Source: Amycolatopsis jiangsuensis (GTDB taxonomy: Bacteria; Actinomycetota; Actinomycetes; Mycobacteriales; Pseudonocardiaceae). From it: a stretch of DNA of 64,000 bases. Numbering within the stretch: the stretch's first letter is position 1; each line of letters starts with the position of its first letter. The stretch spans positions 124,001 through 188,000 of the forward strand of contig NZ_JACHMG010000001.1 of assembly GCF_014204865.1 (NCBI RefSeq), read 5' to 3'. The notes under the pieces are model-generated. The model was not told the origin of the DNA, ran no database searches, and worked only from the letters and a program-made list of their open reading frames with translations. The position numbers and the translations under genes were made by a program. Shown one piece after another: positions 12,106-42,564 of this stretch.

Positions 12106-16751
<4,646 letters not shown>

Positions 16752-16767
16752 CAGGGGATCCACGCAA

Positions 16768-22173: not shown

Positions 22174-25100
22174 CCACACCGCAGGAGAAGGTCGTCGAGG
22201 CCCTGCGCGCCTCGCTCAAGGAAACCGACCGCCTCAGGCAACAGAACCGGCAGCTCACCGACGCGGCGGCGGAGCCCATCGCGATCGTGGCGATGAGCTG
22301 CCGGTTCCCCGGCGGGGTGAGCTCCCCGGAGCAGTTCTGGGACCTGCTGGCAGCCGGCACCGACGCCATCTCGGTCTTCCCGGACGACCGTGGCTGGGTG
22401 GGAGACGGGCGCGGCACCGGCGAGGTCCGCCACGGCGGATTCCTCTACGACGCAGCCGATTTCGACCCGGCTTTCTTCGAGATCTCCCCGCGCGAGGCAC
22501 TCGCGATGGACCCCCAGCAGCGGCTGCTGCTGGAGACGTCGTGGGAGGTGCTCGAACGCGCCGCGATCGATCCCCGCACCTTGCGAGGCAGCCGGACCGG
22601 GGTGTTCGCGGGCGTGCTGAACAACGAGTACGGCTCGCGGCTGCACTCGATTCCGCCGGGAGTGGCCGGGTACGTCGGCAACGGCAGCGCGGGCAGCATC
22701 GCCTCCGGCCGGGTCGCCTACACCTTCGGCTTCGAAGGCCCGTCGCTGACCGTCGACACCGCGTGCTCGTCGTCCCTGGTCGCGCTGCACCTGGCCTGCC
22801 AGTCCCTGCGGCAGGACGAGTGCACCCTCGCGCTGGCCGCCGGGGTGACGGTGATGGCGACGGCGGGCACGTTCGCCGAGTTCGGCCGCCAGCAGGCACT
22901 CGCCCCGGACGGCCGGTGCAAGACCTTCGCCGACTCCGCCGACGGCACCAGCCTGGCCGAGGGCGCCGGCATGCTGCTGCTGGAACGCCTTTCCGACGCC
23001 CGGCGCAACGGGCATCCGGTGCTGGCGGTCGTGCGTGGTTCGGCGATCAACTCCGACGGCGCATCGAACGGGCTGACCGCGCCCAACGGCCCGTCGCAGC
23101 AGCGGATGATCCGGCAGGCACTGGCGAACGCGCGGGTGAGCGCCGGCGAGGTCGACGCGGTCGAGGCACACGGGACCGGCACGACCCTCGGCGACCCGAT
23201 CGAGGCGCAGGCCCTCCTAGAAACCTACGGCCAGGGGCGCGAGCGTCCGCTGTGGCTGGGGTCGGTGAAGTCCAACATCGGTCACACGCAGGCCGCTGCC
23301 GGCATGGCCGGGGTGATCAAGATGGTGCTCGCCATGCGGCACGGCCTGCTGCCGAAGACGCTGCACGTCGACCGGCCCTCCACCCACGTGGACTGGTCCG
23401 CCGGGGCGGTCCGGCTGCTCACCGAAGCCCGCGACTGGCCGGAGACCGCCGAGCCGCGCCGGGCCGGGGTGTCGTCGTTCGGGGTGAGCGGCGCCAACGC
23501 GCACGTGATCCTCGAAGCGGTCGAGGAGCCCGCCGTCGAGCCGAGGGAGCCCGCTTCCCCGGTGCCGCTGCCGGTGGTCCTGTCCGGCCGCGACGTCGCG
23601 GCCGTCCGGGCGTCGGCCCGGCAGGTGCGCGCGGCCGCGCGGGACCTGGAGCCGGCCGACCTGGCCTTCTCACTGGCGACCACGAGGGCGGGCATGGAAC
23701 GCCGGGCGGCGTTTGTCGCCGCCGACCGGGACGAGCTGATGCGGGGCCTCGACGCCATCGTCGACGGCGGGCTCGTCGGCACCGCGATTCCCGATGGCCG
23801 GGTGGGTTTTTTGTTTTCGGGTCAGGGTTCGCAGCGGGTGGGTATGGGGGGTGAGTTGTGGGCGCGTTTTCCGGTTTTTGCGGCTGTGTTTGATGAGGTG
23901 TGTGCGGAGTTTGGTGGGTTGCGGGAGGTGATTTTTGCGGATGATCGGTTGCATCGGACGGAGTTCACGCAGCCGGGGTTGTTCGCGTTTGAGGTGGCGT
24001 TGTATCGGTTGCTGGAGTCGTGGGGTGTTGTGCCGGATGTGGTGGTGGGGCATTCGATTGGTGAGTTGGTGGCGGCGTATGTGGCTGGGGTGTGGTCGTT
24101 GCCGGATGCGTGTCGGGTGGTGGCGGCTCGTGGTCGGTTGATGCAGGGGCTGCCGGAAAGTGGTGCGATGGTGGCGGTGCAGGCGGCGGAGGCGGAAGTT
24201 GTTCCGTTGTTGCCTGCTGGTGTGGGTGTTGCGGCGGTGAATGGTCCTTCGTCGGTGGTGGTGTCGGGTGTGGCGGACGAGGTTGTGGCGGTGGGGGAGG
24301 TTTTTGCGGGGCGTGGCCGTAAGGTGAAGCGGTTGCGGGTGAGTCATGCGTTTCATTCGGTGTTGATGGAGCCGATGCTGGCGGAGTTCCGTGAGGTTTT
24401 GGCGGGGGTGGAGTTTCATTCACCGTCGAAGGTGGTGGTGTCGAATGTGTCGGGTGTGGTGGCTGGTGGGGAGTTGTGTTCTCCGGATTATTGGGTTCGG
24501 CATGTGCGTGAGCCGGTGCGGTTTGCTGATGGGGTGGCGGCAGCGCGGGCTCGGGGTGTGGGGACATTCCTGGAGATCGGGCCCGACAGCGCACTGACGG
24601 CCATGGTGGACGAGGGCGCCGTCGCGGCACTGCGCGCCGATCGTCCGGAGGAGACCGCCCTGATGTCCGCGCTGGGGCGGCTGCACGTCCGCGGGGTATC
24701 GATCGACTGGGCGCCGCTGTTCGACGGCGCCCGCCGGGTCGGCTTGCCGACGTACCCGTTCCAGCGCGAGCGCTACTGGCTCCGGGACGGCCCGGCCGGG
24801 CAGACCACCCTCACCTCGGTGGTGGAGATCGCCGGCCGCGACCGCTTCGTGTGCACCGGCGAGCTCGGCGTCGCCGGGCAGCCCTGGTTGGGGGACCACG
24901 CCGTGCACGGCCGGCTCATCGCCCCCGGCACGGCACTCGTCGACTTCGCCCTGCAGGCCGCGGCCGGCATCGGCACGGGCCATCTCGACGACCTCGTGCT
25001 CGAAGCCCCGCTCGTCGTTCCCGCCGAAGGCGCGGTGGAGCTCCAGCTGACTGCGGACGAGCCGGACGGCTCAGGGCGCCGCGAGCTGAACCTCTCCTCG

Positions 25101-28100
25101 CGCCAGGGCGACGGGCCGTGGACCCGCCACGCGACCGGCTCGCTGACGGTGGCCGGCGGCCCCTCGCCGTTCGATGCGGTGCCTTCCGGTGCCGAGTGGC
25201 CGCCGTCCGGCGCGGAGCCCGCCGACCTCGACGCGCTCTACGACCGGTTCGCCGGCCACGGCATCGAGTACGGGCCCGCGTTCCGCGGCGCGGAAGCGGT
25301 GTGGACGCGTGGCGACGAGGTTTTCGCCGAGGTCCGGCTGCCGGGTGGGCAAAGCGGCGGCCACGCCCTGCACCCGGCGCTGTTCGACGCCGCGCTGCAC
25401 GCCGCGGCCCTGGCTGAGTACGCGGGCAGCGGGCTGCCGTTCGCCTGGCGCGGGGTCGGCCTGCACTCGACCGGCGCCACCCGGCTCAGGGTCCGGATCG
25501 CGCCGTCGGAGCAGGACGGGATTTCGCTGCTCGCGACCGACGAAGGCGGACGTCCGGTGCTGGAGATCCGCTCCCTGGTCCCGCGGCCGCTCCCGGCCGG
25601 CCACGACTCGCTGTTCGTCCTCGAGTGGACGCCCGCCCGGCACGGCGAACCAGCGGCGCAGGACACGGTTGTCGAAGAGTTCCCTGCCGGCGCGGGCACC
25701 GTCGAGGAGATCCACGCCGCGACCCGCCGCGCGCTGGGTCTGGTCCGGGCCTGGCTGTCCGAGGACCGGCCGGAACGGCTCGTGTTCGCCACCCGGGGCT
25801 CGGTCGCCACCGAGCCGGGTGCCGAGCCGGACCTGACCAACGCCGCGGTCTGGGGCCTGGTCCGGTCGGCGCAGACCGAGCATCCTGGCCGCTTCCAGCT
25901 CGTCGACCTCGACGAGCACGGGACCGTGCCGGCCTCGGCCGAACCGCAGCTGGCGGTCCGCGGCGACGCGGTGCTGGCGCCCCGCCTGACCAGGGCCGCC
26001 GCGCCCGCCCGGCCGCGCGACCCGGCCGGGCGCGACCCGGCCGGCCCGGTGCTGATCACCGGGGGCACCAGTGGCCTCGGCCTGCTGGTGGCCCGGCACC
26101 TGGCCGCCGAACACGGCGTCCGCGACCTCGTGCTGCTCAGCCGCACGGGCACGGTGCCCGAAGGCATCGACGCCGACGTCCGCGTCCTCGCCTGCGACGT
26201 CGCCGACCGGGCCGCCCTTGCCGCCGCGCTGGACCGGGTGGGGCGTCCCAGCCTGGTGGTGCACGCGGCCGGGATCCTGGCCGACGGCGTGGTCGCCGGA
26301 CTGTCCGCCGACCAGGTCGACCGGGTGCTGCGCGCGAAGGTCGACGGCGCGGTGAACCTGCAGGAGCTCACCGGCGACGACACCGAGTTCGTGCTGTTCT
26401 CCTCGGCCGCGGGTGTCTTCGGCGGAGCGGGCCAGGCAGGGTACGCCGCGGCCAACGCCTTCCTCGACGCGTTCGCGTCGGCCCGCCGCGCTCGCGGCCT
26501 CCCAGCGACGTCCCTGGCCTGGGGCCTGTGGGAGCACGGCGGGATGGCCGGTGGCCTCGGGACCACCGACCTGGCCCGGATGACCAGAGGGGGAACCGCC
26601 GCGCTGACGGCCGAAGAAGGCCTCGCGTTGTTCGACGCCGCCCGCGGCGCGGACCACCCGGCCGTCGTTCCGATCAAGCTCGACCTCACCGTCCTGCGCG
26701 AGCAGGCCGACCCCCACCGGCTGGTGCGCGACCTGGCCCGGGTGCCTGCCCGGACTCCGGCGCCCCGCGCCACCGGAGTCCCCGGCGAAGCCGAGCTGAT
26801 GGACCTGGTGCTCGCCCAAGTCGCGGCGGTCCTCGGCCACGGCGACGCCTCGGCCGTCGACCCGCACCGCGCCTTCAAGGAACTCGGCTTCGACTCGCTG
26901 ACCGCCGTCGAACTGCGCAACCAGCTCAACGCTGCCCTCGACACGCGGCTGACTGCGACGCTGGTCTTCGACCACCCGACCCCGGCCGCGCTGGCCGAGC
27001 ACCTGCGCAGGGAACTGCACGGCGCCGCACCGGAGCGCCTCGTGCCGGAGCGGCAGGCACCCGCCGACGACGACCCGGCTGTCATCGTGGCCATGAGCTG
27101 CCGCTATCCGGGCGGGGTCACGTCACCGGCGGAGCTATGGGACCTCGTCTCGGCGGGCCGGGACGCGATCACGCCCTTCCCGGCGGACCGCGGGTGGGAC
27201 GTCGAGGGGCTCTACGACCCGGACCCGGACCGCCGGGGCCGGTCCTACGTCCGCGAAGGCGGATTCCTGCACGACGCGGCCCAGTTCGACGCCGCGTTCT
27301 TCGGTATCTCCCCGCGTGAGGCCGTCGCGATGGACCCCCAGCAGCGGCTGCTGCTGGAGATCACGTGGGAGCTGTTCGAACGGGCCGGGATCGACCCGGA
27401 CTCGGTGCGCGGCAGCCGCACCGGTGTGTTCACCGGGGTGATGTACCACGACTACGCCGCCCGCCTTTTGGTCGTCCCCGAGGACGTCGAGGGCTACCTG
27501 GGCAGTGGCAACGCGGGCAGTGTCGCTTCCGGCCGGCTCGCCTACACCCTGGGTCTCGAAGGCCCCGCGGTCACGATCGACACGGCGTGCTCGTCGTCGC
27601 TGGTGGCGCTGCACCTGGCGGCGCAGGCCGTCCGGCAGGGGGAGTGCGAAGCCGCACTCGCCGCCGGGGTGACGGTCATGGCCACGCCCGCGGCGTTCGT
27701 GGACTTCAGTCGGCAGCGGGGACTCGCGGCGGACGGCCGCTGCAAGTCCTTCGCCGAAGCCGCCGACGGCACCGCTTGGGGCGAAGGCGCCGGCGCCGTG
27801 CTGGTGGAGCGGTTGTCGGACGCCCGGCGCCTCGGTCATCCGGTGCTGGCGGTCGTGCGGGGGAGCGCGATCAACTCCGACGGCGCCTCGAACGGGCTCA
27901 CCGCGCCGAACGGGCCGTCCCAGCAGCGGGTCATCCGCCAGGCACTCGACGCCGCGGGCCTGGCCGCCCGCGACGTGGACGCCGTGGAGGCGCACGGGAC
28001 CGGCACCACGCTGGGCGACCCGATCGAAGCGCAGGCGCTGCTCGCCGCCTACGGCCAGGACCGCGAGCACCCGTTGTGGCTGGGCTCGGTGAAGTCGAAC

Positions 28101-29975
28101 ATCGGGCACACCCAGGCGGCCGCGGGCGTGGCCGGCGTCATCAAGATGGTGGAGGCCATGCGGCACGGCGTGCTGCCCCGGACGCTGCACGTGGACGAGC
28201 CCTCCTCGCACGTCGACTGGACGGCCGGTGACGTCGCCCTGCTCACCCGGCAGCAGGAGTGGCCGCGAGCCGGCCGGGCGCGTCGCGCGGCGGTGTCGTC
28301 CTTCGGCATCAGCGGCACCAACGCGCATGTCATCCTCGAAGCCGCGCCGGCCTGCCCCGCCGCGGCACCGGAGCCGGGCCACGACGGTGCCGTGCCGGTG
28401 CTGCTGTCGGCCAAGACCGAGCCGGCCCTGCGGGCGCAGGCCGAGCGGTTCCGGCTCGTCGCCGGCCAGGACCTGGCCGCGCTCGCGTGGTCGTCGGTGA
28501 CCACCCGGGCCGCCTTCGGCCACCGGGCGGTGGTGCTCGCCAGGGACCGCGCGGACCTGGAGCGCGGCCTGACCGCGATCGCGACCGGCACCCCGGCCGC
28601 GCACGTCAGCGTCGGTGCGGCCGAACCCGGCGCGGTCGGGTTCCTGTTCTCCGGCCAGGGTTCCCAGCGCGCCGGGATGGGCAGGGAGCTGGCCGCCCGA
28701 TTCCCGGTGTTCGCCAAGGCTTTCGACGAGATCTGCGCCGGGTTCGGCCCGCTGGCCGACATCGTGGGGGAGAAACCCGGGCTGCTCGACCGCACCGAGT
28801 TCGCCCAGCCCGCGCTGTTCGCGTTCGAGGTGGCCCTGTACCGGCTGCTCGAATCGTGGGGCGTGACGGCGAAGGTGCTGGTCGGGCACTCGATCGGCGA
28901 GCTGGTGGCGGCGCACGTCGCCGGGCTCTGGTCGACCGCCGACGCCTGCCGGGTGGTGGCCGCTCGCGGCCGGTTGATGCAGGCGCTGCCGGGAGGCGGT
29001 GCGATGGCCGCGGTCGAGGCCACCGAAGCCGAGCTGGCGCCCCTGCTCACCGGCGGGGTCGGCCTCGCCGCGGTGAACCAGCCGTCGTCGGTGGTCGTCT
29101 CGGGGCTGGAACAGGAGGTCGCCCGGATCGCCGAGACCGTCAGCGGCTGGGGCCGCCGGACCAAGCGGTTGCGGGTGAGCCACGCGTTCCACTCGTCGTT
29201 GATGGAGCCCATGCTGGACGAGTTCCGCCGCGTGCTCGACGAGGTCGAGTTCGGCGAACCGGCGAAGCTCGTCGTGTCGAACCTGACCGGCCGGGTGGCG
29301 GGCGGGGAGCTGCGCTCGCCCGAGTACTGGGTCCGCCACGTGCGTGAGACGGTCCGCTTCGCCGACGGGGTGGCCGCGGCCCGCGCCGCCGGCGTGACGA
29401 CCTTCGTGGAACTCGGCCCGGACGGCGCGCTGTCCGGGCTGACGCCGGGCTCCACCGCGCTGCTGCGGGCGGACCGGCCGGAGCCGGAGTCGGTGCTGGC
29501 CGCGCTCGGCGGCCTGCACGTCCGCGGCGCCGGCGTGCGGTGGCCCGCGGTGCTCGAGGGGACCGCGGCCCAGCACATCGACCTGCCCACCTATCCGTTC
29601 CAGCGCAAGCGTTTCTGGCTGGACGCCACCCCGCTGGAGACCGGCCCGGCCGGCGCTGCGGCCGACGAGCCGGACGAAACCGTCCCCGTCGACCTCCGCC
29701 GGCAGCTCGGTGCACTGGACCAGGCCGGCGGTGACACCGCGGTGCTGGACCTGCTGCGGGCCACCATCGCGGCCGTGCTGGGCCACGACTCACCGGACGA
29801 GGTGCCGCCGGAGGCCGACCTGCTCGACCTCGGCTTCGCGTCGCTGACCGCGGTCGAGCTGAGCAACCGGCTGACCGCGGCGACCGGCCTGGAACTGGCG
29901 CCGACGCTGGTCTTCGACCATCCGACCCCGATCGAGCTCATGCGCCACCTGCGTGCGGAGCTGGCCACACCGTAA
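22170..29975 (+). CDS. Modular type I PKS, two terminal modules, no thioesterase
   Basis: 2601 aa; ATGA overlap with the preceding gene. Module A: KS 22275-23520, AT 23800-24780 (GHSIG, HAFH, malonyl), DH 24820-25610 ([23 protein letters not shown]; looks active), KR 26040-26590 (LAD, B-type), ACP 26800-27010. Module B: KS 27080-28345, AT 28635-29620 (GHSIG, HAFH, malonyl), ACP 29740-29950 with GFASL in place of GFDSL. The protein stops straight after this ACP, with neither TE nor docking tail. Module A would give the C2=C3 alkene. Module B leaves a beta-keto thioester, the substrate needed for condensation with an amino acid and Dieckmann closure to a tetramic acid. The release partner is inferred to be the glycine NRPS at 50,492. 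Confidence 0.95.
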
Positions 29976-29991
29976 GAAGGGAAGAGCAACC

Positions 29992-30813
29992 ATGGACACG
30001 CTCGGCTCGCAGAGCCCGCAGCTCACCTCGCCGGACTGGCAGGTCCTGTGGCAGGACGACTTCGCCGGACCGCGCGGCGCACCACTGGACCGCGGCCGGT
30101 GGAAGACGATCACCGGCAAGCCCTGGGCCGCCGGGATCGAGTCCTACGCGGACGACACCGATCATCTGAGCCTGGACGGCGACGGGCACCTGCGGCTGAC
30201 CGCCACACACAGCGAGCAGGACGGCTACGTCTCAGCCTGGATCGAGACGGTGCGGGAGGACTTCGTGCCGGCGCCGGGCGGCGCGCTCAAGGTCGAATCG
30301 GTGGTTCAGACCGCCCCGGGGCTGGGCCTCGACTGCGCGATGTTCGCGTGGGCGAACCGGATGCGGCACCTCGGGGACACCGAGCCGCTGCAGGGCTGGT
30401 ACCTCTCCGGCGAGCTGGACGTCTTCGAGGTGGTCAACTCGGAGCCCGCCGACGTCTACGGCGTCGTGCACTCACCGGAGTGCCACCAGCTGCCGTCGCT
30501 GGGGCTGGGCTCCGCCACGGCCACGCCGGACGGACGGCCGCTGAGCGAGGGCTTCCACACCTACTCCGTGGTGTGGACCCGCGATCCGGACTCGATCACC
30601 TGGTACCTCGACGGCCGCGAATACCTCCGGCTCACGCCGGAGGACACCACGCCCCAGGGCTGGCTGTTCACCCAGGAGGTCTTCTTCGGCCTGCTGCTGG
30701 TGGTCGGCAGCCCCGGCGGGCCGGTCATGCCCGGCGAGCCCGACCCCGCCGCCTTCCCGACGACGATGCTGGTCGACCGCGTCACGGTCGCGGAGCTGAG
30801 GCCGCCCGCCTGA
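29992..30813 (+). CDS. GH16-like protein, TrdE-type dehydratase candidate
   Basis: 273 aa. ATG at 29992 is preceded by a purine-rich ribosome site (AGAAGGGAAG) and lies 16 bp after the PKS stop, so it is probably co-transcribed. The fold is that of glycoside hydrolase family 16: an N-terminal W-x-D-D-F beta strand, then the ExDxxE catalytic signature seen as GELDVFEV at about residues 140-147, then a late HTYSVVWTRD strand. No signal peptide is visible, so it acts in the cytoplasm, which is unexpected for a polysaccharide hydrolase. In tirandamycin biosynthesis the GH-family protein TrdE is known to form the 11,12 double bond. Position and family suggest the same role here (inference), since the module making the C11 alcohol has no DH. 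Confidence 0.8.
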   Translation: MDTLGSQSPQLTSPDWQVLWQDDFAGPRGAPLDRGRWKTITGKPWAAGIESYADDTDHLSLDGDGHLRLTATHSEQDGYVSAWIETVREDFVPAPGGALKVESVVQTAPGLGLDCAMFAWANRMRHLGDTEPLQGWYLSGELDVFEVVNSEPADVYGVVHSPECHQLPSLGLGSATATPDGRPLSEGFHTYSVVWTRDPDSITWYLDGREYLRLTPEDTTPQGWLFTQEVFFGLLLVVGSPGGPVMPGEPDPAAFPTTMLVDRVTVAELRPPA

Positions 30814-31477: not shown

Positions 31478-31495
31478 ATAGTCTTATTGTACTAT
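31478..31495. promoter_or_regulatory. Candidate PadR operator, ATAGT-N8-ACTAT
   Basis: Inverted repeat ATAGT (31478-31482) and ACTAT (31491-31495) in the gap between the divergent PadR and HelD-like genes. The same sequence and spacing occur upstream of the second PadR at 48662-48679. It is AT-rich against a GC-rich background. Confidence 0.7.
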
Positions 31496-31539: not shown

Positions 31540-33696
31540 ATGGCTGCGCCGGACGTGAAGCTCGCCGCCGGCCTCCCAGCCGGTCCGGAGCCCGTCGAGC
31601 CGGAGATCCGCGTCGAGCGCGACTTCATGGAGCACTGCCGCGCGAAGCTGATCCGGATGCGCGGCGAGGCCACCGCGATGCTCGACAGCGGGGCGGCCGA
31701 AGGCGACGCCGTCACGGACAAGTACTTCAACCACGCGCTGCGCGAGTTCCGCAAGCAGGTGGTCAAGGACCTGTCCGGCTTCGACGACGTGCCACTGTTC
31801 TTCGGCCGCCTCGACTACCCGGCGGGTGATGTCTTCGACATCAAGGCCGACGCCGTTCGCGGCGACGGCTCCCACACGCGCCGGGACGACAGCGACCTCG
31901 TTTACGTCGGCCGCCGCGGAGTCCGCGACGAAGACGGCGAACCCATCGTCATCGACTGGCGCGCCATGCTCTCCCGCGCGTTCTACGAAGCGTCCTCATG
32001 GGACCCGATGGGCGTGCGCGTGCGCCGCCGGTACGGTTTCGACCAGCACGGCGTGCTGACCGCCTTCGAAGACGAGCGCTTCACCGGTGCGGACAGCTCC
32101 GGCGGCGGCAGCGATCTGCTGACGGCGGAGATCGAGCGGCCCCGCCAGGGCCCGATGCGCGACATCGTGGCCACGATCCAGCCCGAGCAGATGCGCCTGG
32201 TGCGCGCCTCCGTCGACCAGACGCTGTGCATCCAGGGCGCGCCGGGCACCGGCAAGACCGCGGTGGGCCTGCACCGGCTTGCGTACCTGCTCTTCTCCGA
32301 GCGGGACCGGCTGCGCAAGGGGGGCGGCGTCGCCGTCATCGGGCCCAACAGCTCCTTCCTCGCCTACATCCGCAACGTCCTGCCCGCGCTCGGCGAGGTG
32401 GAGGTCTCCCAGGCCACCATCGACGACCTCACCGGTCAGGGCCGCACCGCCGGCCGCGTCGACGACCTGGCGGCGGCGCGGATCAAAGGCAGCCTGGACA
32501 TGGCTGAGGTCGTCCGGCGCCACCTGTGGTCGCAGATCTGCCAGCCGGAGGAGACGCTCGAACTCACGCATCAGCACCGCACCTGGCGGGTGTCCGTCGA
32601 GCAGCAGGCCGCGGAGCTCGAGGACGTGCTCGGCCGGGGAACCGGCTACAGCGCCGGCCGCGAACTGCTGGTCCAGCGCCTGGCGCATTGCGTGCTGCGT
32701 CAGATGGAACGGGTCGGCCGGGCCGGGACCACACTGACCCAGCTCTGCCGGAACCGGGGGATCGGCCAGGCCGTCCGGCGGATGTGGCCCGCCGTCGACC
32801 CGGCCCGCCTGGCCTTCGACCTGCTCACGGACTCAGACCACCTGGCCGCGGCCGCCGACGGGATCCTGTCGGCGGAGCAGCAGCAGGCCATCCTGGTGAG
32901 TCCTCGTCCGCGCAGCGTCAAGACGATGACCTGGTCGACGCTCGACCTGGCGCTGCTCGACGAAGCCGCGGGCCTGGTCGGCAGGCCGGACCGGCTGGGG
33001 CACATCGTGGTCGACGAAGCACAGGACCTCAGCCCGATGCACTTCCGCGCGATCGCGCGCCGGGTCGCGGGAGCCTGCACGGTGCTGGGCGACCTGGCCC
33101 AGGCGACGAGCCCGTCGGCGGTGGGGGACTGGTCGGAGGTGCTCGCCCACCTTGATCGCCCCCGCGGCCGGATCGAAGTCCTCGACCGCGGCTACCGGGT
33201 GCCCGCGGAGGTGCTGGACTACGCGGCCCGCCTCCTCCCGCACATCGCCCCGGACCTGACCGGGCCGACCTCCATCCGGCACAGCGCGGACGCGCTGCAC
33301 GTGACCCGGACCAGCCCGGACCGGCGAACCGAAACGATTGTCGAAGCCTGCGAAACCGCGCTGGTCCGCGAAGGCTCCGTGTGCCTCATCGCCGCCGACA
33401 ACGACGTCGCGGAACTGCACGAGACCCTGACGGCCCACGACATCAAGCACACGGTCCTCGGCGGCGAGGGCCTGGACGCGGAGCGCGTCACCTTGGCCCC
33501 GGTGACCCTGGCCAAGGGCCTCGAGTACGACACGGTCCTGGTGGTCGAGCCGAGCCGGATCGTCGACGCCGAACCCCGTGGGCTGCAGCGGTTGTACGTG
33601 GCACTGACCCGCGCGGTGAGCCGGCTGCAGGTCGTGCACGCCCAGCCGCTGCCGGTGGCGCTCGCGCCCGAATACGCGCTGACCGACATCCGTTAG
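31540..33696 (+). CDS. helD: HelD/HelR-like UvrD-type ATPase acting on RNA polymerase
   Basis: 718 aa; ATG at 31540 after GGGGG. An open frame upstream is rejected as start because it would overlap PadR. Domains: an N-terminal arm (RDFMEHCRAKLIRMRGEA), Walker A GAPGTGKT at about residue 233, Walker B VVDEAQD at about residue 490, and C-terminal motifs including GLEYDTVLVVEPS and LYVALTRAV. This is the superfamily 1 layout of HelD, which removes RNA polymerase from stalled complexes. The actinomycete relative HelR protects polymerase from rifamycins. Tirandamycin-type tetramates also target RNA polymerase, so self-protection of the producer is a strong inference. The PadR-type operator upstream suggests induction by the product. 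Confidence 0.85.
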   Translation: MAAPDVKLAAGLPAGPEPVEPEIRVERDFMEHCRAKLIRMRGEATAMLDSGAAEGDAVTDKYFNHALREFRKQVVKDLSGFDDVPLFFGRLDYPAGDVFDIKADAVRGDGSHTRRDDSDLVYVGRRGVRDEDGEPIVIDWRAMLSRAFYEASSWDPMGVRVRRRYGFDQHGVLTAFEDERFTGADSSGGGSDLLTAEIERPRQGPMRDIVATIQPEQMRLVRASVDQTLCIQGAPGTGKTAVGLHRLAYLLFSERDRLRKGGGVAVIGPNSSFLAYIRNVLPALGEVEVSQATIDDLTGQGRTAGRVDDLAAARIKGSLDMAEVVRRHLWSQICQPEETLELTHQHRTWRVSVEQQAAELEDVLGRGTGYSAGRELLVQRLAHCVLRQMERVGRAGTTLTQLCRNRGIGQAVRRMWPAVDPARLAFDLLTDSDHLAAAADGILSAEQQQAILVSPRPRSVKTMTWSTLDLALLDEAAGLVGRPDRLGHIVVDEAQDLSPMHFRAIARRVAGACTVLGDLAQATSPSAVGDWSEVLAHLDRPRGRIEVLDRGYRVPAEVLDYAARLLPHIAPDLTGPTSIRHSADALHVTRTSPDRRTETIVEACETALVREGSVCLIAADNDVAELHETLTAHDIKHTVLGGEGLDAERVTLAPVTLAKGLEYDTVLVVEPSRIVDAEPRGLQRLYVALTRAVSRLQVVHAQPLPVALAPEYALTDIR

Positions 33697-33758: not shown

Positions 33759-33850
33759 TGGGGAAAGATTCACCGGCTGGATAACGTGAGTAAATCGTTG
33801 AGGCGATTCTCCTTGTCGGCGATCTCATGAATTCTGGATGTGGACGAATA

Positions 33851-35368
33851 ATGAATTCCGTCAATGTTCTTGTCGTGGGCGCTGGTCCCACCGGGCTCAC
33901 CCTCGCCTACGACCTCGCCCGCCGGGGCGTCTCGGTGCGGATCATCGACCGGGACGTGAAGTTCACCACCGCCTCCCGCGGCAAAGCCGGAATCCAGCCA
34001 CGCACCCAGGAGGTGTTCGACGACTTCGGCGTCGTCGACCAGGTGCTGCGGGCAGGCACCACCCGGCTGCCGTTCCGGCGCTATCACCGCGACCGGATCG
34101 TCAGTGAAGCGATCCCTTACGAGGCCAACGACCCGCGGCCGGACGCGCCGTACCGTCGGCTGCTGTTCGTCCGGCAGTCCCTGGTCGAGGGGATCCTCCG
34201 GGACCGGCTCGCGGAAACCGGGCACACGGTCGGGTCCGGGGTCGAACTGCTCCGGTTCGAGCAGGGCGCAGAGGGCGTGACGGCGACGCTCGGCTCGGCC
34301 GAGGGGGCGGAGGAGATCACCGCCGACTACCTGGTCGGGTGCGACGGCGGCGCGAGCACCGTGCGCAAGTCGCTCGGGCTGGAGTTCCGCGGGTTCACCG
34401 AGGAGGACCGCAAGCTGCTCGTCGGGGACGTCGAGGTCGACGGGCTGGAGCCGGACGCCTGGTATCAGTGGTACGACATGGAGCGCGGCGTTCTCCTGCT
34501 GTGCCCGCTCGCGGACACCGGCACCTGGCAGATCCAGGCGTCGCCGCCGGTGGACGCCGACGGCTTGCCGATGGGCCCCTCGCTCGAGGCGTTGCAGGCC
34601 TCGGTGGACCGGATCACCGGGATGCCGATCCGGCTGGGCAACCCGACCTGGATGTCGACCATGAAGCGGAACGTGCGGATGGTCGACACCCTGCGCGTCG
34701 ACCGCGTCTTCCTGGCGGGGGACGCCGCCCACGTGCACCCGGTCACCGCCGCGCTGGGCGCGAACACCGGCGTGCAGGACGCGTACAACCTGAGCTGGAA
34801 GCTGGCCAGGGTGCTCGGCGGCGCCGAGGACGGGCTGCTCGACACCTACGAGCGCGAACGGGTGCCCATCGCCGAGTGGACGCTCAAGACCGCGTGCGAC
34901 GCCGGTGACCTGATCGTCGAGGCCATGGTGGCGGGCGAGGGCGGCGCCGAGAAGGGCCTGACCGAGGACTCGCTGCAGCTCGGCCTGCACTACCGGGAAG
35001 GCCCGCTGAGCCGCGACCTCGTCGGCCGGGGCGCGCTCCGCGCGGGTGACCGGGCGCCCGATTCGCCGTGCCCCGGCGCCGCGGACGAGGCGGCGACGCT
35101 GTTCGACGTCTTCCGCGGGCCGCACCTGACGCTGGTGGGCGTCGGCGCGAGTACCGCCGCCGCGCTCGGCGCAGTGGCCGACCGGCGGCGCGGCGACGTG
35201 CGGACGGTCCTGCTGACCGAGCAGCCCGAGGCGTACGCCGGCCCGGACGACCGGCTCGTGCTGGTGCGGCCGGACGGCTACATCGGCCTCATCGCGCCCG
35301 CGGACGACCCGCAGGCCGTACTCGACTACCTGGCGACAGTGGACAGTTTCGTACTGGTGGAGGACTGA
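33851..35368 (+). CDS. Class A FAD-dependent monooxygenase
   Basis: 505 aa. ATG at 33851 (MNSVNVLVVGAG) is chosen over an in-frame ATG at 33827 because GGA sits 7-9 bp upstream and the FAD fold then begins at the usual distance. Motifs: GAGPTG near residue 10, the DG motif CDGGASTVR at about residue 166, and the GD motif GDAAHVHPV at about residue 290. The segment after the GD motif reads VTAALGANTGVQDAYN, whereas most relatives have PPxGGxGMNTG. The C-terminus has the thioredoxin-like domain of phenol-hydroxylase-type enzymes. It probably hydroxylates or epoxidises the tetramate scaffold, or inactivates it as Rox does rifamycin. Which of these cannot be decided here. It has its own promoter with site A. 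Confidence 0.85.
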   Translation: MNSVNVLVVGAGPTGLTLAYDLARRGVSVRIIDRDVKFTTASRGKAGIQPRTQEVFDDFGVVDQVLRAGTTRLPFRRYHRDRIVSEAIPYEANDPRPDAPYRRLLFVRQSLVEGILRDRLAETGHTVGSGVELLRFEQGAEGVTATLGSAEGAEEITADYLVGCDGGASTVRKSLGLEFRGFTEEDRKLLVGDVEVDGLEPDAWYQWYDMERGVLLLCPLADTGTWQIQASPPVDADGLPMGPSLEALQASVDRITGMPIRLGNPTWMSTMKRNVRMVDTLRVDRVFLAGDAAHVHPVTAALGANTGVQDAYNLSWKLARVLGGAEDGLLDTYERERVPIAEWTLKTACDAGDLIVEAMVAGEGGAEKGLTEDSLQLGLHYREGPLSRDLVGRGALRAGDRAPDSPCPGAADEAATLFDVFRGPHLTLVGVGASTAAALGAVADRRRGDVRTVLLTEQPEAYAGPDDRLVLVRPDGYIGLIAPADDPQAVLDYLATVDSFVLVED

Positions 35369-36009
35369 TGTACCGGCCCGAGTACTTCCGCGCCCCCGAT
35401 CTGCAGGCGCAGCACGACCTCATCGAGGAGTACCCGTTCGGCCTGCTCACCCTGTCCATGTTCGGCTCGCCCGCCGCCGTGCACCTCCCGTTCGTGCTCG
35501 ACCGCGACTCCTGGCCGTACGGCAAGCTGCGCGGGCACCTGTCCCGGGGCAACCCCATCGCGAAAGCGTTGTCCGAGAACGTTGAGGTGCTGGTCGCCTT
35601 CACCGGGCCGAGTTCGTACATCTCACCGGACCACTACGAAACCCAGCCGCATTTCCCCACCTGGGCCTATGCGGCGGTGCACGTGAAGGGACGGCCGCGG
35701 CTGCTCGACGACGCCCGGACCGTGCGCCAGCTGACCGACCTGATCGCCGAGCAGGAGGCCCGCCTGGCGCCCAAGGAGCCGTTCGTGCTGCCCCGGCAGT
35801 CCTCGGAGCTGTTCGACGAGTACCTGCAGCTCATCCAAGGGTTCGAGATCTTCATCGGCCGGATCGACGGCATCTTCAAGCTGGGGCAGAACAAGACGCC
35901 GCGTGACATGGCCGCCCAGGCGAAGGCGTTCCGGGAACGGGGGACCGAGAGCTCGCTGCGCATGGCCGATTCGCTGGAACAGCACAACCCGTTTCCCAAG
36001 TTTTCCTGA
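35368..36009 (+). CDS. PaiB-like FMN-binding split-barrel protein
   Basis: 213 aa; TGATG overlap with the flavin monooxygenase, so the two are translationally coupled. The family is recognised from the N-terminal YRPEYFR, the central SSYISPDHY and PTWAYAAVHVKG, typical of the PaiB/FMN-binding negative transcriptional regulator family with its flavin-binding split barrel. Family members have been called regulators of proteases and sporulation but may be flavin or haem enzymes. Coupling to an FAD monooxygenase makes a partner in flavin chemistry or a flavin-dependent reductase plausible, but no function is established. Confidence 0.75.
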   Translation: MYRPEYFRAPDLQAQHDLIEEYPFGLLTLSMFGSPAAVHLPFVLDRDSWPYGKLRGHLSRGNPIAKALSENVEVLVAFTGPSSYISPDHYETQPHFPTWAYAAVHVKGRPRLLDDARTVRQLTDLIAEQEARLAPKEPFVLPRQSSELFDEYLQLIQGFEIFIGRIDGIFKLGQNKTPRDMAAQAKAFRERGTESSLRMADSLEQHNPFPKFS

Positions 36010-36750
36010 AGAGGTGCGCGTAACCGCGCCGCCGAGGCGGCTCGGGGATGGCTGTCCGGCCGGCGTGGGCGCGGGTGGTGGTGATCGGCGCCGGAGGTGC
36101 GTAGCCAGGGGCCTGGCCGGACCGGCACGCACGTCCGGGCGTGTTCACGTTCTGTTGGGTTTGTGCACAACCTCCAAAGGATCGAGAACAAGAAAAGCGC
36201 TCGGCCGTTGTCAAACTAATGATGACAGTTGTTCGGAATCGAATTCTGTTTCTCCGGACGGGTGCGGGATTCGCACCCTCGGCGAGAGATATGACATACA
36301 TCCGGAATGTCGGGGATTCCCGGTCGCCGCGGCCCTGATTTCGCAGGTCCACCACGTTGCCGAGGTGGTCAGTGACACCTGGGGGCAGATCGTCAAGGTG
36401 GATCGGCTGGACGCCGCGATCGGGACCGGCGATGACCCGAATGCCAGACATGGTTCCCTGGCGCCAGGGAACCTGGCCGGTCAGCTGACCGAGGGGAGTC
36501 AGGTGTGCCCTTCGGTCGACCCGGTGACAACGGAGGGTGGAGCTATTCGGCTGGCGACCGCATATCAACCCGTCAAATGGGTGACATGCCATGCTGCTCT
36601 GCGTGACCTGACATTCCCGCATCCCCCTGGTACCGTGATCATCGCAAAGTACTGGGACTGGGATTGAGACTTGTTTTCCGATGACTGGGGGGTCTGTCCG
36701 GTTGTCATGCCGGCTTGACTCGTTGTGCAAAAAACTGGCCTGGGGGTCTT
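36010..36750. other. 741-bp intergenic region with palindromes, no supported gene
   Basis: No open frame here has convincing start, codon bias or recognisable family. The stretch at about 36130-36330 has lower GC than its surroundings. It contains a 7-bp-stem hairpin (36260-36278), a 22-bp perfect palindrome (36451-36472) and a 14-bp palindrome (36477-36490). It probably holds the promoter and leader of the LuxR-type regulator. Confidence 0.6.
36451..36490. promoter_or_regulatory. Two adjacent perfect palindromes upstream of the LuxR regulator
   Basis: GGTTCCCTGG (36451-36460) is followed directly, after the central CG, by CCAGGGAACC to 36472, a perfect 22-bp palindrome. Seven bases after its first half-site pair ends... 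CGGTCAGCTGACCG at 36477-36490 is a 14-bp perfect palindrome. They lie about 260-300 bp before the GTG of the regulator and could be operator sites or RNA hairpins in a leader. Confidence 0.45.
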
Positions 36751-39492
36751 GTGATTGCGCTGGTCGAACGTAATCGGCAAATAATGACTTGGGAAGGGAT
36801 GATTAATAGCGGCATCGGTGGTGTCGTGACGGTGCGCGGTTCCGTCGGCAGTGGCAAGACCGTCCTGCTGACCGAGTTCGCCCGGCTGGCCGCCGCTCGC
36901 GGCATCCGCTGTATCACCGTCACGGCCGGTGCGGAGGGGGCGAACTGCTGGAATCTGCTGGACGAAGTCCTTGCCGCTGTGGGACACCGCGAGGCCGACC
37001 CGGCCGCGGCCCTCGCCGGACTGGCCGCCGCCGGCCCGCTGGCTGTGCTGGTGGACGATCTGCAGCGGCTGGGAGCCGCGCCTGCGGAGCTGACGGCCGC
37101 GGTGGCGCAGCTGGGCGCCGCCGGCGTGCTGGTCGTACTGGCCGACGATGTCGAGGCCACCCCGGCGTGGGCCGCGATCTACGCGGAACTGCTGCGGCTG
37201 CCCTGTTTCCGGTCGATCCGGCTGCCCCCGCTGACCCGGTCCGGGGTGCGCGAGGTGCTCTCGGGCCACCTGGACGGTCCCTGCGATCCGGAGCTCGTCG
37301 CCGAGGTCTGCGCCCTGACCGCGGGCAACCCGCTGCTGGTGCGCGCACTCGTGGAAGACCTGCTGGCGGTCGACGCGGCCGACCGGCTGCCGATGTCGAC
37401 CGGACACGCCTTCCAGGAGGTGATGTCGGTGTGCCTCAGCCGGATCGCGCCGCAGGCGGCCCAGCTCGCGGAGTGCGTCGCGGTGCTCGGCGACGCGACG
37501 GACCCCGCCGTGCTCGCCGCGGTCGTCGGCGTCGACGAAGCGGGGCTGCCCCCGCTCGTGCGCACTCTGGCCGGCATCGGCCTGTTCGCCGATCGGGCCG
37601 ATCCCGCGTTCCGGTCGCCCGGGCTGGGGGCCGCGGTGCGCTCCGTGGTCAGCGCCGCTGGTGCCACCGACCTGCGGGTCCGCACGGCCTCCGCGCTGCG
37701 CTCGCGCGGCGCGGAGGCGAGCGAAGTCGCCGCGCTCCTGCTGGAAGCGGGCTGCGCGCCGGACGAGTGGGGGGTCGCCGCGTTGTTCGACGCGGCGGAG
37801 CGCTGCCTGCACGAGGGCGACGTCGAGCGGGCCCGCCGTTACCTGTGCCTGGCGGCCCTGCCCCGCCCCGGCCGCGAGTGCTCCCATGCCGACACCCGCG
37901 CGGTCTCGCTCGGCTGGCTGCTCGACCCGGCGGCCGTGCCGCGCCGGCTCGCCGGCGCGGTCGACGCCGTCGCGGGCGGCGGGTTCACTCCCCACGAGGC
38001 GATCGTGCTGGCCGGGCAGCTGCTCTGGCACGGCTGGCACGACGAGGCCGTCCCGACCCTGGCCTGGCTGGCCGCGAACCGGTCCACCTTCGCCCCGGAC
38101 GACGCCGAGGATGTGCAGACCCTCTCGCTGCACATCGCGATCACCTATCCGGGGATGGCAAGGCACCTCGAGCCCGCCGGCACCGCGCATGCGCGCAGCG
38201 ACGTCGTGACCAGGGCCAGCGACGCGCTGCTGCATTCGATGCACGTCCTGCGGGCCGTGATCGTCACCAGCCCGAGCCCGGATTTGGTGCGCGAGGCGCT
38301 GCGGTCACTGGAAGTCTGCGCGCTGCGCCGGATGCCGCTGGAGCCCAGCCTGTTCGCGCTGCTGTCCCTGATCTACGCCGATGAGCTGGAGAGCGCCGCG
38401 CACTGGTGCGACCAGCTGCTCGAGGAGGCGGCGCGGCGCGGCATCGTGGCGCTGGAGGCGACCCTGCTCGAATCCCGGGCGCACATCGCGCTGACCGCGG
38501 GCGACCTGCCCGCGGTCGAGCTGTACGCCCGGCGCGCCCTCGACGTACTGCCCGCCGAGGGCTGGGGAACCGCCGTCGGCGCGCCGCTGAGCGTGCTCGT
38601 CGGCGCGCTGGTGGGCATGGGCCGGTTCGAGGACGCGGCCGCCGAACTCGGCCGGCCGGTGCCCGCGGCCATGTTCCGCACCGTGTGGGGCCTGCGCTAC
38701 CTGCGCTCGCGCGGCTACTACTACCTCCACACCGGGGGTGCCCGCGCCGCGCTCGGCGACTTCAGGTCGATCGGCTCGCTGATGGCCGAATGGAACCTGG
38801 ACAGCCCGGTTCTGCTGCCGTGGCGCTCCGACGCCGCCGAAGTCCACCTGCAGCTCGGCGAGGGCGACGAGGTGGTGCGGCTACTGGACGAGCAGGCCGG
38901 CCTGCCCGGCGGCGACAGCGGCAAGCTGCGCGGCGTCGAAGCCCGGATCCGCGCGAGCAACACGGACCGGCGGGACCGCAGCCGCGCCCGGACCGCCGCG
39001 GTCGCGGTGGAGCACCTGGAGGCGGGGCAGGACCGGCTGGAGCTGGCCAAGGCGCTGGCCGTGCTGGGTGACGTCCACCGGGCCTCCGGTGACGGCCGCC
39101 GGGCCCGGATGGTGATCCGCCGGGCGCTGCACCTGGCCACGCTGTGCCGGGCCGAACCGCTGGTTTCCGGGCTCACCGGCCAGCAACGGCCTGCCCGCGC
39201 CGCGGGCACCGGCGCCGAGCGGGGGCTGGACTCGCTCAGCGACGCCGAACGGCTGGTGGCCGAGCTGGCCTCCTGGGGCAACACCAACCGGGAGATCGCG
39301 CGCAGCCTGCACGTCACGATCAGCACGGTCGAGCAGCACCTGACCCGCGTCTACCGCAAGCTGAACGTGCGCCGCAGCGATCTGCCCGCCGACCTCGGCA
39401 TGCCGGCCCAGGCGGGATCGGCCACCCGGCGGGCGCTGCAGAGCCGGGTGGAGGCCTACGCCCGCTCCGCCGTGTCGGCGCAAGACCGGTAG
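36751..39492 (+). CDS. Large ATP-binding LuxR-family (LAL) regulator
   Basis: 913 aa from GTG at 36751, which follows GGGGG. An in-frame TTG at 36715 is less likely. The N-terminal STAND/AAA ATPase has Walker A GSVGSGKT at about residue 32 and Walker B LAVLVDDLQ at about residue 98. A long alpha-helical, TPR-like middle follows. The C-terminal LuxR helix-turn-helix begins near residue 830 (LSDAERLVAELASWG, NREIARSLHVTISTVEQHL, YRKLNVRR). LAL proteins are typical pathway-specific activators of macrolide and tetramate clusters. It is the most likely activator in this window, and the 11-bp-spaced repeats at three tailoring promoters are candidate targets (inference). Confidence 0.9.
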   Translation: MIALVERNRQIMTWEGMINSGIGGVVTVRGSVGSGKTVLLTEFARLAAARGIRCITVTAGAEGANCWNLLDEVLAAVGHREADPAAALAGLAAAGPLAVLVDDLQRLGAAPAELTAAVAQLGAAGVLVVLADDVEATPAWAAIYAELLRLPCFRSIRLPPLTRSGVREVLSGHLDGPCDPELVAEVCALTAGNPLLVRALVEDLLAVDAADRLPMSTGHAFQEVMSVCLSRIAPQAAQLAECVAVLGDATDPAVLAAVVGVDEAGLPPLVRTLAGIGLFADRADPAFRSPGLGAAVRSVVSAAGATDLRVRTASALRSRGAEASEVAALLLEAGCAPDEWGVAALFDAAERCLHEGDVERARRYLCLAALPRPGRECSHADTRAVSLGWLLDPAAVPRRLAGAVDAVAGGGFTPHEAIVLAGQLLWHGWHDEAVPTLAWLAANRSTFAPDDAEDVQTLSLHIAITYPGMARHLEPAGTAHARSDVVTRASDALLHSMHVLRAVIVTSPSPDLVREALRSLEVCALRRMPLEPSLFALLSLIYADELESAAHWCDQLLEEAARRGIVALEATLLESRAHIALTAGDLPAVELYARRALDVLPAEGWGTAVGAPLSVLVGALVGMGRFEDAAAELGRPVPAAMFRTVWGLRYLRSRGYYYLHTGGARAALGDFRSIGSLMAEWNLDSPVLLPWRSDAAEVHLQLGEGDEVVRLLDEQAGLPGGDSGKLRGVEARIRASNTDRRDRSRARTAAVAVEHLEAGQDRLELAKALAVLGDVHRASGDGRRARMVIRRALHLATLCRAEPLVSGLTGQQRPARAAGTGAERGLDSLSDAERLVAELASWGNTNREIARSLHVTISTVEQHLTRVYRKLNVRRSDLPADLGMPAQAGSATRRALQSRVEAYARSAVSAQDR

Positions 39493-40892: not shown

Positions 40893-41752
40893 AGTCCACC
40901 GAGCGCACCATCGTGTTCGACGAGCTGGCCGGCCAGTACGACAACACCGGCGTCGAGTTCTTCGGCCCGATCGCGCACCAGCTGCTCGAGCTGCTCGGCC
41001 CGCGGCCGGGTGAGCGTGTGCTCGACGTGGGCTGCGGCCGGGGCGCCGTGCTGTTCCCGGCCGCGGCTGCCGTCGGCCCGGAGGGGTACGTGCTCGGGAT
41101 CGACATCGCGGCGGCGATGGTCACCGCGACCGCCGCCGACGTGGCGGCGCGCGCACTCGGCCACGTCGAGGTCCGCGTGCTCGACGGTGCAGCCCCCGAC
41201 CTGCCGGCCGAGTCGTTCGACCTGATCACGGCGAGCATGAGCGCCGCGCACTTCCCGGATCCGTTCGCCACGGCGGCGCACTACGCGCGGCTGCTGCGGC
41301 CGGGCGGCCGGATCGGGGTGACCGGGCCGGTGCCGCCCCGCGCACTGTCCGAATGGGACCTGGGCGCGCTGCGGGTGGACCGGATCATCGCCGCGGCCGA
41401 CCCGGCGGCGCTCGCCGCCGCGCATCCCCGGGTGGCGGCGCTCTACGGCGAGTACCCGTTCGGCCGGCCAGGCCGGATGTGCGACGCCCTGCGTGCCGCC
41501 GGGTTCACCGAGGTCGCCGAACAACGCCACGACGTCGTGCTCGCAGCGCCGACCGCACAGGCACTCATCGACTGGACCTGGTCCAACGGGCTGCGCGTGT
41601 ACTGGGAACTCGTGCCGGCGGACCGCCGGGAGCAGGTGGCCGCGGAGCTGACCGAGGAGCTGACTGCGCGCGTCGGCGACGGGCCGGTGACCGCGATGTA
41701 CCCCGTCTACCACTACCTGGGGCAGCTGCCCCGGACCGGAGGAGTGAAATGA
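40886..41752 (+). CDS. SAM-dependent class I methyltransferase
   Basis: 288 aa; ATG at 40886 overlaps the end of the P450 by 7 bases. Motif I is [13 protein letters not shown] at about residues 46-58, motif [11 protein letters not shown], and a post-I segment [17 protein letters not shown] typical of small-molecule O-/C-methyltransferases. Position in the tailoring operon between a P450 and the Dieckmann-type cyclase points to methylation of the tetramate. Nocamycin carries a methyl ester and its cluster includes a carboxyl O-methyltransferase, so a P450-generated carboxylate is a reasonable substrate (inference). O- or N-methylation elsewhere is not excluded. Confidence 0.85.
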
Positions 41753-42564
41753 CCACGATGCCGGTATGGCGGAGCCTCGGCGCCGACCCCGGCGGGCCGC
41801 TGGTGCTCGCGGTGGACTACGCGGCCTCCGGCCGGCCGGAGGCCGCGTTCGGCGACCTCGCCGTGGAGCACCCGGTGTGGGAGACGGTGCAGCCGCCACT
41901 GGGGGCGGAGGCCGGCTTCGAACTCGCCGACTACGTCGACGGGTGGCTCGCGGCGGTCCCGGACCGTCCCGTCGAGGCGGTGCTCGGGTACTGCGCGGGC
42001 GGCGCGTTCGCGGGTGAGCTGGTCGCCCGGCTGGCCGAGCGCACCGGCCGGGCGGCGCCGCTGCTGCTGTTCGATCCGGAGTCGCCGACGCCGCTGACGA
42101 TGTACTACCAGTACCGCAAGGTGGTGGAGAGCTTGGCCGGTGTGCTCGGCGCCGAGCGGACGGCGGCCGCCGTCGCCGACGGCGACCGGGCGATGGCCGA
42201 GGCCGACGGCGTCGAGCAGGCGGGCGCGGCGCTCGCCCGGATCTTCGTCGGCGCCGCCCGGGCGGCGTGCGCCGAGGCGGGCCTGGAGGAGGAGTACGTC
42301 GACGAGCTCACCGGCACCTACCGCTCGTTCGTCCGCTACCTCACCGCGGCGTCGCAGGCCGACCACCTGAAGGGCTGGACGGGCGCGTACGTCTTCAGCT
42401 CGGCCACGCCGACCAGCGGCCTGAACCCCCTCGCCCCCGCCGCGCGGGCGGAACTCACCGACCGGGAACTGCGCTTCGACGTCGAGCACGCCGACCTGCT
42501 GCGCACCCCGGCGGTCGCGGCCGCGGTCACCGAGGTACTCGCGAAGGCGCAGGCGTCGCGGTGA
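41749..42564 (+). CDS. Dieckmann cyclase candidate (TrdC/NcmC type), Cys-triad alpha/beta-hydrolase
   Basis: 271 aa; strong GGAGGAG ribosome site at 41738-41744 and an ATGA overlap upstream. The protein resembles a type II/NRPS thioesterase, but the nucleophile elbow is GYCAGG, giving Cys82 in place of Ser. Asp109 (LLLFDPES) and His247 (DVEHADLL) complete a Cys-Asp-His triad. A Cys nucleophile in a thioesterase-like fold is the hallmark of the TrdC/SlgL/NcmC family, which closes beta-ketoacyl-aminoacyl thioesters to tetramic acids or pyridones. The PKS ends in a beta-keto module without TE and the cluster has a glycine NRPS, so chain release and ring closure by this protein is the best reading. 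Confidence 0.85.

What the first reader, a model, noticed from the sequence alone, without database searches (positions are those of the whole stretch)
31540..33696. HelD-type RNA polymerase ATPase as candidate self-resistance inside an RNA polymerase inhibitor cluster
Tirandamycin- and streptolydigin-type tetramates inhibit bacterial RNA polymerase. HelR, a HelD relative, is known to protect actinomycetes from rifamycins by acting on polymerase. A HelD-like gene sits inside this cluster under its own PadR. To my knowledge HelD-mediated self-protection against tetramates is not described.
Basis: partly seen in the sequence, partly recalled or inferred. Interest (0 to 1): 0.8.

Follow-up and report, generated by a model that had tools for sequence, protein, structure and literature searches.

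The report
Antibiotic cluster carries polymerase-rescue protein
A gene for a protein that pries stalled RNA polymerase off DNA sits inside a gene cluster that probably makes an RNA-polymerase-blocking antibiotic, and similar genes appear to have been recruited several times into related clusters, which suggests a so far untested way for the producer to survive its own poison.

Summary
Confirmed: 31540-33696 encodes a 718-aa HelD-type RNA polymerase motor, divergent from a PadR gene, inside a tirandamycin/nocamycin-type PKS-NRPS cluster. It is not a HelR: it scores far below the HelR and HelD cut-offs, lacks the ~70-residue primary-channel loop that HelR uses against rifampicin, and has no RAE. 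It is not housekeeping: close relatives occur in 27 of 390 related genomes. A HelD gene lies in 10 of 11 tetramate clusters found (7 of 8 Pseudonocardiaceae, 3 of 3 Streptomyces, including the streptolydigin cluster); NcmJ of the nocamycin cluster, published as an 'AAA ATPase', is one. These HelDs are polyphyletic, so HelD entered this cluster type repeatedly. A palindrome, ATAGT-N8-ACTAT, occurs exactly three times in the 8.05-Mb genome: before this HelD, before the cluster's exporter, and before a second PadR-HelD-P450 cassette. The host polymerase has an unaltered, drug-sensitive-type streptolydigin pocket; the one tetramate cluster without HelD lies in a genome with several pocket substitutions (a single case). 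Best reading: product-induced target protection of RNA polymerase, co-regulated with export, by an arm/clamp mechanism different from HelR. Function is untested.

The parts
31540..33696 (+). small (PCh-loop-less) class II HelD-like RNA polymerase motor ATPase, 718 aa
30874..31446 (-). PadR1, divergent transcriptional regulator
   Evidence: PF03551, E 2.9e-11
31478..31495 (.). palindrome ATAGT-N8-ACTAT between padR1 and helD (putative PadR operator)
48662..48679 (.). second copy of the palindrome, between padR2-MFS and a P450 gene
48040..48633 (-). PadR2 regulator
   Evidence: PF03551, E 4.4e-13
46409..48043 (-). MFS exporter (NcmH-like), in line with padR2
   Evidence: PF07690, E 8.5e-58
29953..30813 (+). 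GH16-like TrdE/NcmE homologue, marker of this cluster type (start perhaps 29992)
33827..35368 (+). FAD monooxygenase (NcmL-like)
35368..36009 (+). FMN-binding PaiB-like protein (NcmM-like)
   Evidence: PF04299, E 2.8e-40
36715..39492 (+). large LuxR regulator (NcmN-like)
41749..42564 (+). Dieckmann cyclase (TrdC/NcmC-like), ring release
   Evidence: 38-42% identity to the cyclase-like proteins before the NRPS of the Streptomyces clusters; frame
50492..53551 (+). NRPS C-A-PCP (NcmB/TrdD-like)
2..29975 (+). type I PKS genes (continue upstream of the window)
   Evidence: the genes at 16744-29975 by BLAST to and position among the others
48842..50098 (+). P450 gene downstream of the second palindrome

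Best explanation
The gene is a product-inducible target-protection gene of a tetramate RNA polymerase inhibitor cluster. Proposed course: PadR1 (and perhaps PadR2) binds ATAGT-N8-ACTAT and represses helD and the MFS exporter. When the tetramate builds up, repression is lifted. HelD enters tetramate-blocked polymerase with its N-terminal coiled-coil arm in the secondary channel, next to the bridge helix and trigger loop that the drug grips, and with its clamp domain in the main channel. It forces the clamp open, frees the polymerase from nucleic acid and drug, and leaves again using ATP. The exporter removes the drug. SHOWN here: predicted HelD fold, intact Walker motifs, absence of the PCh loop, cluster context, recurrence in related clusters, repeated entry, shared palindrome, unaltered target pocket. 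INFERRED: product identity, PadR binding to the palindrome, induction by the product, drug release, and which arm does the work.
For: (1) HelD near the TrdE/NcmE gene in 7 of 8 Pseudonocardiaceae genomes with that gene (of 390) and in 3 of 3 Streptomyces (of 392), including S. lydicus 103 inside the antiSMASH streptolydigin region 2855210-2966492 given in PMC5357945 (passages). Co-occurrence in Pseudonocardiaceae: hypergeometric p 2.6e-8, genomes counted as independent, which they are not. (2) NcmJ of the nocamycin cluster is in the same subfamily. (3) Single origin of the in-cluster HelDs rejected: AU p 7.9e-49 for the 7, 4.5e-7 for all 10; 5 label changes, 4 forced. (4) PKS/NRPS-like genes near small HelDs outside tetramate clusters: 0 of 80 and 0 of 21 loci. 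(5) The palindrome occurs 3 times in the genome, 0 in the reversed control, each time at a PadR promoter: HelD, exporter, second HelD; exact copies in the six other HelD-bearing Pseudonocardiaceae tetramate clusters. (6) One rpoB; beta stretch RERAGMEVRD as in six congeneric genomes without the TrdE gene; beta' D792, tied to higher streptolydigin sensitivity in PMC3957892. (7) G201, the one cluster genome without HelD, has beta L538I, G544S, E546D and beta' L788M (E. coli numbering counted by me from recall). (8) The M. smegmatis HelD N-terminus impinges on the bridge helix and restricts the trigger loop (PMC11464796, passages); streptolydigin binds along the bridge helix and freezes the trigger loop (PMC3957892, passages).
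Against: No functional data. The class II arm is described as too short to clear the active site, a job given to the PCh loop (PMC8655204), and this protein lacks that loop. [quoted passage not shown] Pocket variation at beta 544 or 546 also occurs in 9 of 28 other genomes, so the G201 contrast is one case, not a statistic. S. lydicus has both a changed pocket (AGLD) and HelD. The RpoB and RpoC of this strain do have 13 and 18 substitutions private against congeners (none in the stretches named as the drug pocket). 21 of the 28 subfamily places lie outside tetramate clusters, so a more general role is possible.
Confidence: 0.68

Rival explanations
1. Genome-maintenance helper: HelD only clears drug-stalled polymerases from DNA to prevent replication collisions, while export does the protecting; the drug itself is not displaced.
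For: Recycling of stalled complexes is the base function of HelD (PMC10719064, PMC8655204). The exporter has the same palindrome. The loop that displaces rifampicin is missing.
Against: Repeated entry into one drug class of cluster suggests a link to the drug, though a clearing role would also give this.
Confidence: 0.17
2. Pathway regulator: the ATPase modulates transcription of the cluster, as the nocamycin authors implied by listing NcmJ among regulators.
For: Listed with regulators in the abstract and text of PMC5466765.
Against: It is a HelD by sequence and predicted fold, not a DNA-binding regulator; 21 of 28 subfamily places lie outside tetramate clusters, 16 of these 21 beside a TetR gene and one beside a PadR gene.
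Confidence: 0.08
3. HelR-type protection against rifamycins or other foreign polymerase inhibitors that happens to lie here.
For: Same superfamily; class II HelDs protect against rifampicin (PMC10719064).
Against: No PCh loop, no RAE, 322 bits against a HelR_2 cut-off of 1100, while the same genome has a HelD at 1328 and 1331 bits, above both cut-offs. Recurrence is with tetramate clusters.
Confidence: 0.03
4. Passenger: a HelD gene inserted by chance, without a role for the product.
For: Transposase remnants lie in the cluster (53657-55446).
Against: Several separate entries into one cluster type; none found near other PKS/NRPS genes; regulator and palindrome conserved.
Confidence: 0.04

Closest known systems
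HelR (class II HelD, rifamycin protection; S. venezuelae SVEN_6029, M. abscessus MAB_3189c, as named in PMC10719064)
   Same: HelD fold, RNA polymerase motor, proposed target protection against a polymerase inhibitor
   Different: Ours lacks the PCh loop and RAE, is divergent from a PadR, belongs to another clade, and sits in the likely inhibitor's own gene cluster
M. smegmatis HelD (6YXU, 6YYS, 8Q3I)
   Same: closest solved fold along nearly the whole chain
   Different: PCh loop missing in ours (the alignment skips residues 450-515 of the chain); 28-33% identity
NcmJ of the nocamycin cluster (S. syringae; KY287782 by PMC5466765)
   Same: same small-HelD subfamily, 66% identity, in a homologous cluster with a PadR-MFS pair; identified with P0020 by organism, length 713 aa and gene order
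   Different: lies in another place in the cluster, next to a divergent TetR (NcmK); branches with other Saccharothrix-like HelDs
B. subtilis HelD (class I)
   Same: no PCh loop; its N-terminal arm protects polymerase from rifampicin (PMC12802891, passages)
   Different: longer arm; 18-20% identity
Streptolydigin self-resistance by the RpoB of S. lydicus (Sanchez-Hidalgo 2010: title seen in a reference list; paper not held; residues recalled)
   Same: same drug class and target
   Different: target change, not target protection; S. lydicus 103 has both the AGLD reading and a HelD in the cluster

Membership tests
HelD superfamily, class II | HelD fold: N-terminal arm, 1A/2A ATPase, clamp (CO) domain | tested here: met
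   (predicted model); arm helices 21-50 and 61-78
HelD superfamily, class II | Walker A and B motifs | tested here: met
   GAPGTGKT and DEAQD in 19 of 19 rows of A1; alignment
HelD superfamily, class II | PCh loop (named as characteristic of class II in PMC11464796) | tested here: not met
   41 residues in the region in all 10 in-cluster HelDs, against 110-117 in five large HelDs and 69-70 in two others
HelD superfamily, class II | binds RNA polymerase | not testable with these tools
   inferred from homology only
HelR (rifamycin protection) | score over the NCBIfam HelR cut-offs | tested here: not met
   322.4 vs 1100 and 293.2 vs 750 bits
HelR (rifamycin protection) | upstream RAE 19-bp palindrome | tested here: not met
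   none in the window with up to 3 mismatches; the (recalled) pattern does match two Streptomyces HelD loci, L196 and L199, of 293 loci
HelR (rifamycin protection) | rifampicin resistance | not testable with these tools
   no assay
tirandamycin/nocamycin/streptolydigin-type cluster | TrdE/NcmE-type GH16-like protein | tested here: met
   75% to the S. syringae protein, 55-62% to the Streptomyces/Kitasatospora entries that bear a name
tirandamycin/nocamycin/streptolydigin-type cluster | PKS, single-module NRPS and Dieckmann cyclase | tested here: met
tirandamycin/nocamycin/streptolydigin-type cluster | makes a tetramate that inhibits RNA polymerase | not testable with these tools
   no chemistry

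The most novel reading that the evidence does not exclude
Small, PCh-loop-less HelDs of this clade are a dedicated resistance family against bridge-helix (tetramate) inhibitors of RNA polymerase. They act through the secondary-channel arm and clamp opening rather than the rifampicin-ejecting loop, are switched on by tetramate-sensing PadR or NcmK-type TetR repressors, have been drawn into tetramate clusters several times (five places in the tree), and also stand alone in non-producers as an environmental tetramate resistome. The TetR in the S. lydicus streptolydigin cluster is 48-54% identical to the TetRs beside stand-alone HelDs of the subfamily.
Probability: 0.4. Interest if true: 0.85.

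Novelty: new variant of a known kind. Interest (0 to 1): 0.77.

Why it matters
How tetramate producers with a drug-sensitive polymerase survive is open, as far as I could find, apart from export and the RpoB change reported in S. lydicus (recalled). If HelD protects, target protection of RNA polymerase is not limited to rifamycins and not tied to the PCh loop, the unexplained 'small HelD' paralogues of actinomycetes gain a function, and a small HelD beside a PadR or TetR becomes a marker for finding polymerase-inhibitor clusters. The nocamycin and streptolydigin systems make it directly testable by gene removal.

Tried and rejected
Rejected: housekeeping HelD (27 of 390 genomes; flanks are cluster genes); HelR (cut-offs, loop, RAE); duplicate or altered polymerase as the sole protection (one rpoB in each of 24 genomes; pocket unaltered); one vertical origin with the cluster.

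A motif-to-motif measure of the PCh loop misread several rows (for example 16 for L196 and 127 for L016) and gave no value for L014, L194 and own_L005; it was replaced by an alignment, which is what the report uses.

Results against, found by testing: pocket changes at beta 544 or 546 also occur in 9 of 28 other genomes (a 29th, G211, gave no match; most of those outside the family were not searched for a tetramate cluster). In RpoB one column (330 of the open frame) separates the four Amycolatopsis cluster genomes from six congeners; it is not in the named pocket.

Full report

WHAT KIND OF HelD. NCBIfam scores are 322 bits to HelR_2 (cut-off 1100) and 288 to the mycobacterial HelD model (cut-off 1051). 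The same genome has four more HelDs, besides one weak match at E 7e-4. One of them, in L175, passes both cut-offs with 1328 and 1331 bits. In the region that holds the PCh loop, all 10 in-cluster HelDs and the second HelD of this genome have 41 residues, against 110-117 in five large HelDs (two of this genome, two of S. lydicus, one of G201) and 69-70 in two others (also 84). In the tree the small HelDs are split from four large ones by a long branch with support 100. The RAE of HelR genes (pattern recalled) is absent from the window.

DISTRIBUTION. Of the 120 best relatives listed, the first 46 have 62-86% identity; the next ones have 57% or less, apart from one fragment (P0111, 70%) (only the 8000 candidates sharing most words were scored). 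Among 390 Pseudonocardiaceae genomes 27 have a match at E 1e-150 or better, 28 places in all, two of them in this genome (two candidates per genome were scored, so further copies could be missed). The TrdE/NcmE marker, at 72% identity or more with a gap to 40%, is in 8 of the same 390, in 3 of 392 genomes of the genus of G412 (Streptomyces by inference, since G913 matches S. lydicus 103 in length) and, in a phylum sample of 396, only in the window's own genome. HelD lies within about 11 kb of it in 7 of the 8 and in all 3 Streptomyces (2 to 6 kb). Hypergeometric p for the co-occurrence in Pseudonocardiaceae is 2.6e-8; four of the seven are one Amycolatopsis lineage, so the true weight is less. 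The S. lydicus gene lies inside the streptolydigin region given in PMC5357945 (passages). NcmJ, called an AAA ATPase there and listed with regulators, is the S. syringae member (PMC5466765).

REPEATED ENTRY. In a careful 44-row tree the in-cluster HelDs fall in five places: Amycolatopsis, Actinosynnema, Saccharopolyspora, Saccharothrix and Streptomyces (5 changes; 4 forced by starred branches). The Actinosynnema and Amycolatopsis placements rest on weaker branches. A single clade is rejected for the seven (AU p 7.9e-49) and for all ten (p 4.5e-7) (the group was chosen by context, not from the tree). Several unlabelled rows (for example P0012, beside the Saccharopolyspora copy) have unknown context and could lower the count. 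The gene also lies in different positions: between the GH and monooxygenase genes in Amycolatopsis, beside PadR2-MFS in Actinosynnema and S. syringae, beyond the FMN-binding gene in Saccharopolyspora. PKS/NRPS-like genes (300 aa or more aligned to the window's) were found near none of 80 small-HelD loci from genome contigs nor near 21 non-tetramate subfamily loci (flanks of about 9-10 kb, many cut by contig ends; 3 of the 80 belong to the subfamily and two of those are the same places as in the 21).

REGULATION. ATAGT-N8-ACTAT lies between padR1 and helD and before padR2-MFS (2 matches; window shuffles with one mismatch allowed: mean 0.01). In the whole genome it occurs three times, and never in the reversed control. 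The third site is before another divergent PadR-HelD pair (HelD 73%, PadR 65-67% identical), followed by a P450 gene and with no PKS/NRPS gene in the stretch fetched. Exact copies are at PadR promoters in all six other HelD-bearing Pseudonocardiaceae tetramate clusters; of 293 loci, 23 have it, all of them these places or overlapping stretches. PadR1 is 61-67% identical to the PadR2 proteins and the L148 PadR, and 80% to its G144 counterpart. So HelD, exporter and second HelD look like one regulon. In 16 of the 21 non-tetramate subfamily loci a TetR of the NcmK type (58-73% identity to NcmK) is adjacent and divergent instead; four have neither and one has the PadR. The TetRs of two Streptomyces tetramate clusters belong to the same family (50% to NcmK); in G1057 that TetR is beside an MFS gene and not beside HelD.

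TARGET. Each of 24 genomes has one rpoB. In nine of the ten genomes with an in-cluster HelD the streptolydigin stretch reads RERAG[M/F]EVRD, as in 13 genomes without the TrdE gene in that call; S. lydicus reads RERAGLDVRD. In beta' the motifs TADSGYL and QLTMRTFH are the same in all 20 genomes examined; the D is position 792 (my count), which PMC3957892 (abstract and passages) ties to higher streptolydigin sensitivity. Against six congeners RpoB of this strain has 13 private substitutions, and RpoC 18 against four; none lies in the pocket stretches. G201, without HelD, reads NALGPGGISRERASMDVRD in beta and ADTAMRTAD in beta', i.e. L538I, G544S, E546D, L788M, plus S531N. This is suggestive only: 9 of 28 other genomes vary at 544 or 546.

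MECHANISM. PMC11464796 (passages) reports that the HelD N-terminus in the secondary channel impinges on the bridge helix and restricts the trigger loop; PMC3957892 places streptolydigin along the bridge helix, freezing the trigger loop. PMC12802891 (passages) shows that class I HelD, which has no PCh loop, protects from rifampicin through this arm. The window protein keeps the arm (helices 21-50 and 61-78) with an acidic turn conserved within the subfamily (E54, G55), but not in the distant small HelDs, the clamp domain and the motor. I therefore commit to arm-and-clamp target protection. Against it, PMC8655204 (passages) calls the class II arm too short to clear the active site by itself.

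LITERATURE. Searches and 85 of the open-licence library listed no paper on HelD in tetramate clusters (listings of 2 to 25 papers each). 'HelD' cannot be told from the English word, and the streptolydigin and tirandamycin cluster papers did not turn up, so these may describe the gene under another name. The HelR papers are known to me only through the review PMC10719064 (passages) and recall. PMC8655204 (section) notes small HelD variants of unknown role and (section) suggests that several HelDs may help producers of bioactive compounds in general.

VERDICT. A real and well-supported candidate for self-protection, a new variant of HelD target protection, with the function untested.

Noticed in passing
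G000:C1:1640748-1642823 (L148:6760-11482): Second divergent PadR-HelD pair followed by a P450 gene, with no PKS/NRPS gene in the 20 kb fetched, with the same palindrome; possibly a stand-alone resistance cassette.
   Followed up: partly
window 53657-55446: Transposase and integrase remnants between the NRPS and a short-chain dehydrogenase gene.
   Followed up: no
window 33827-36009: FAD monooxygenase related to rifampin monooxygenases (209 bits, far below the cut-off of 800) beside a PaiB-like FMN-binding protein; the pair is kept in G353 and in the Streptomyces cluster G1057. Drug modification or biosynthesis is open.
   Followed up: partly
G201 rpoB (L225) and rpoC (L248): The tetramate cluster genome without HelD has several substitutions in the streptolydigin pocket.
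   Followed up: partly
L214 (G1057) and L225 (G201), also G389, G378, G210: RpoB has N at the position of E. coli S531 (my count), a rifamycin-site position, in some genomes.
   Followed up: no
L207 and L208 (S. lydicus): Two paralogous TrdE-type GH genes in the streptolydigin region (62% and 55% to the window's).
   Followed up: no
L196 and L199: The RAE pattern lies in the fetched loci of two Streptomyces HelD genes with 32-33% identity to this one, consistent with HelR.
   Followed up: no
window 45222-46412: A P450-like gene on the - strand, read directly from the sequence and not scanned; further P450 genes by Pfam at 39645, 43934 and 48842.
   Followed up: no
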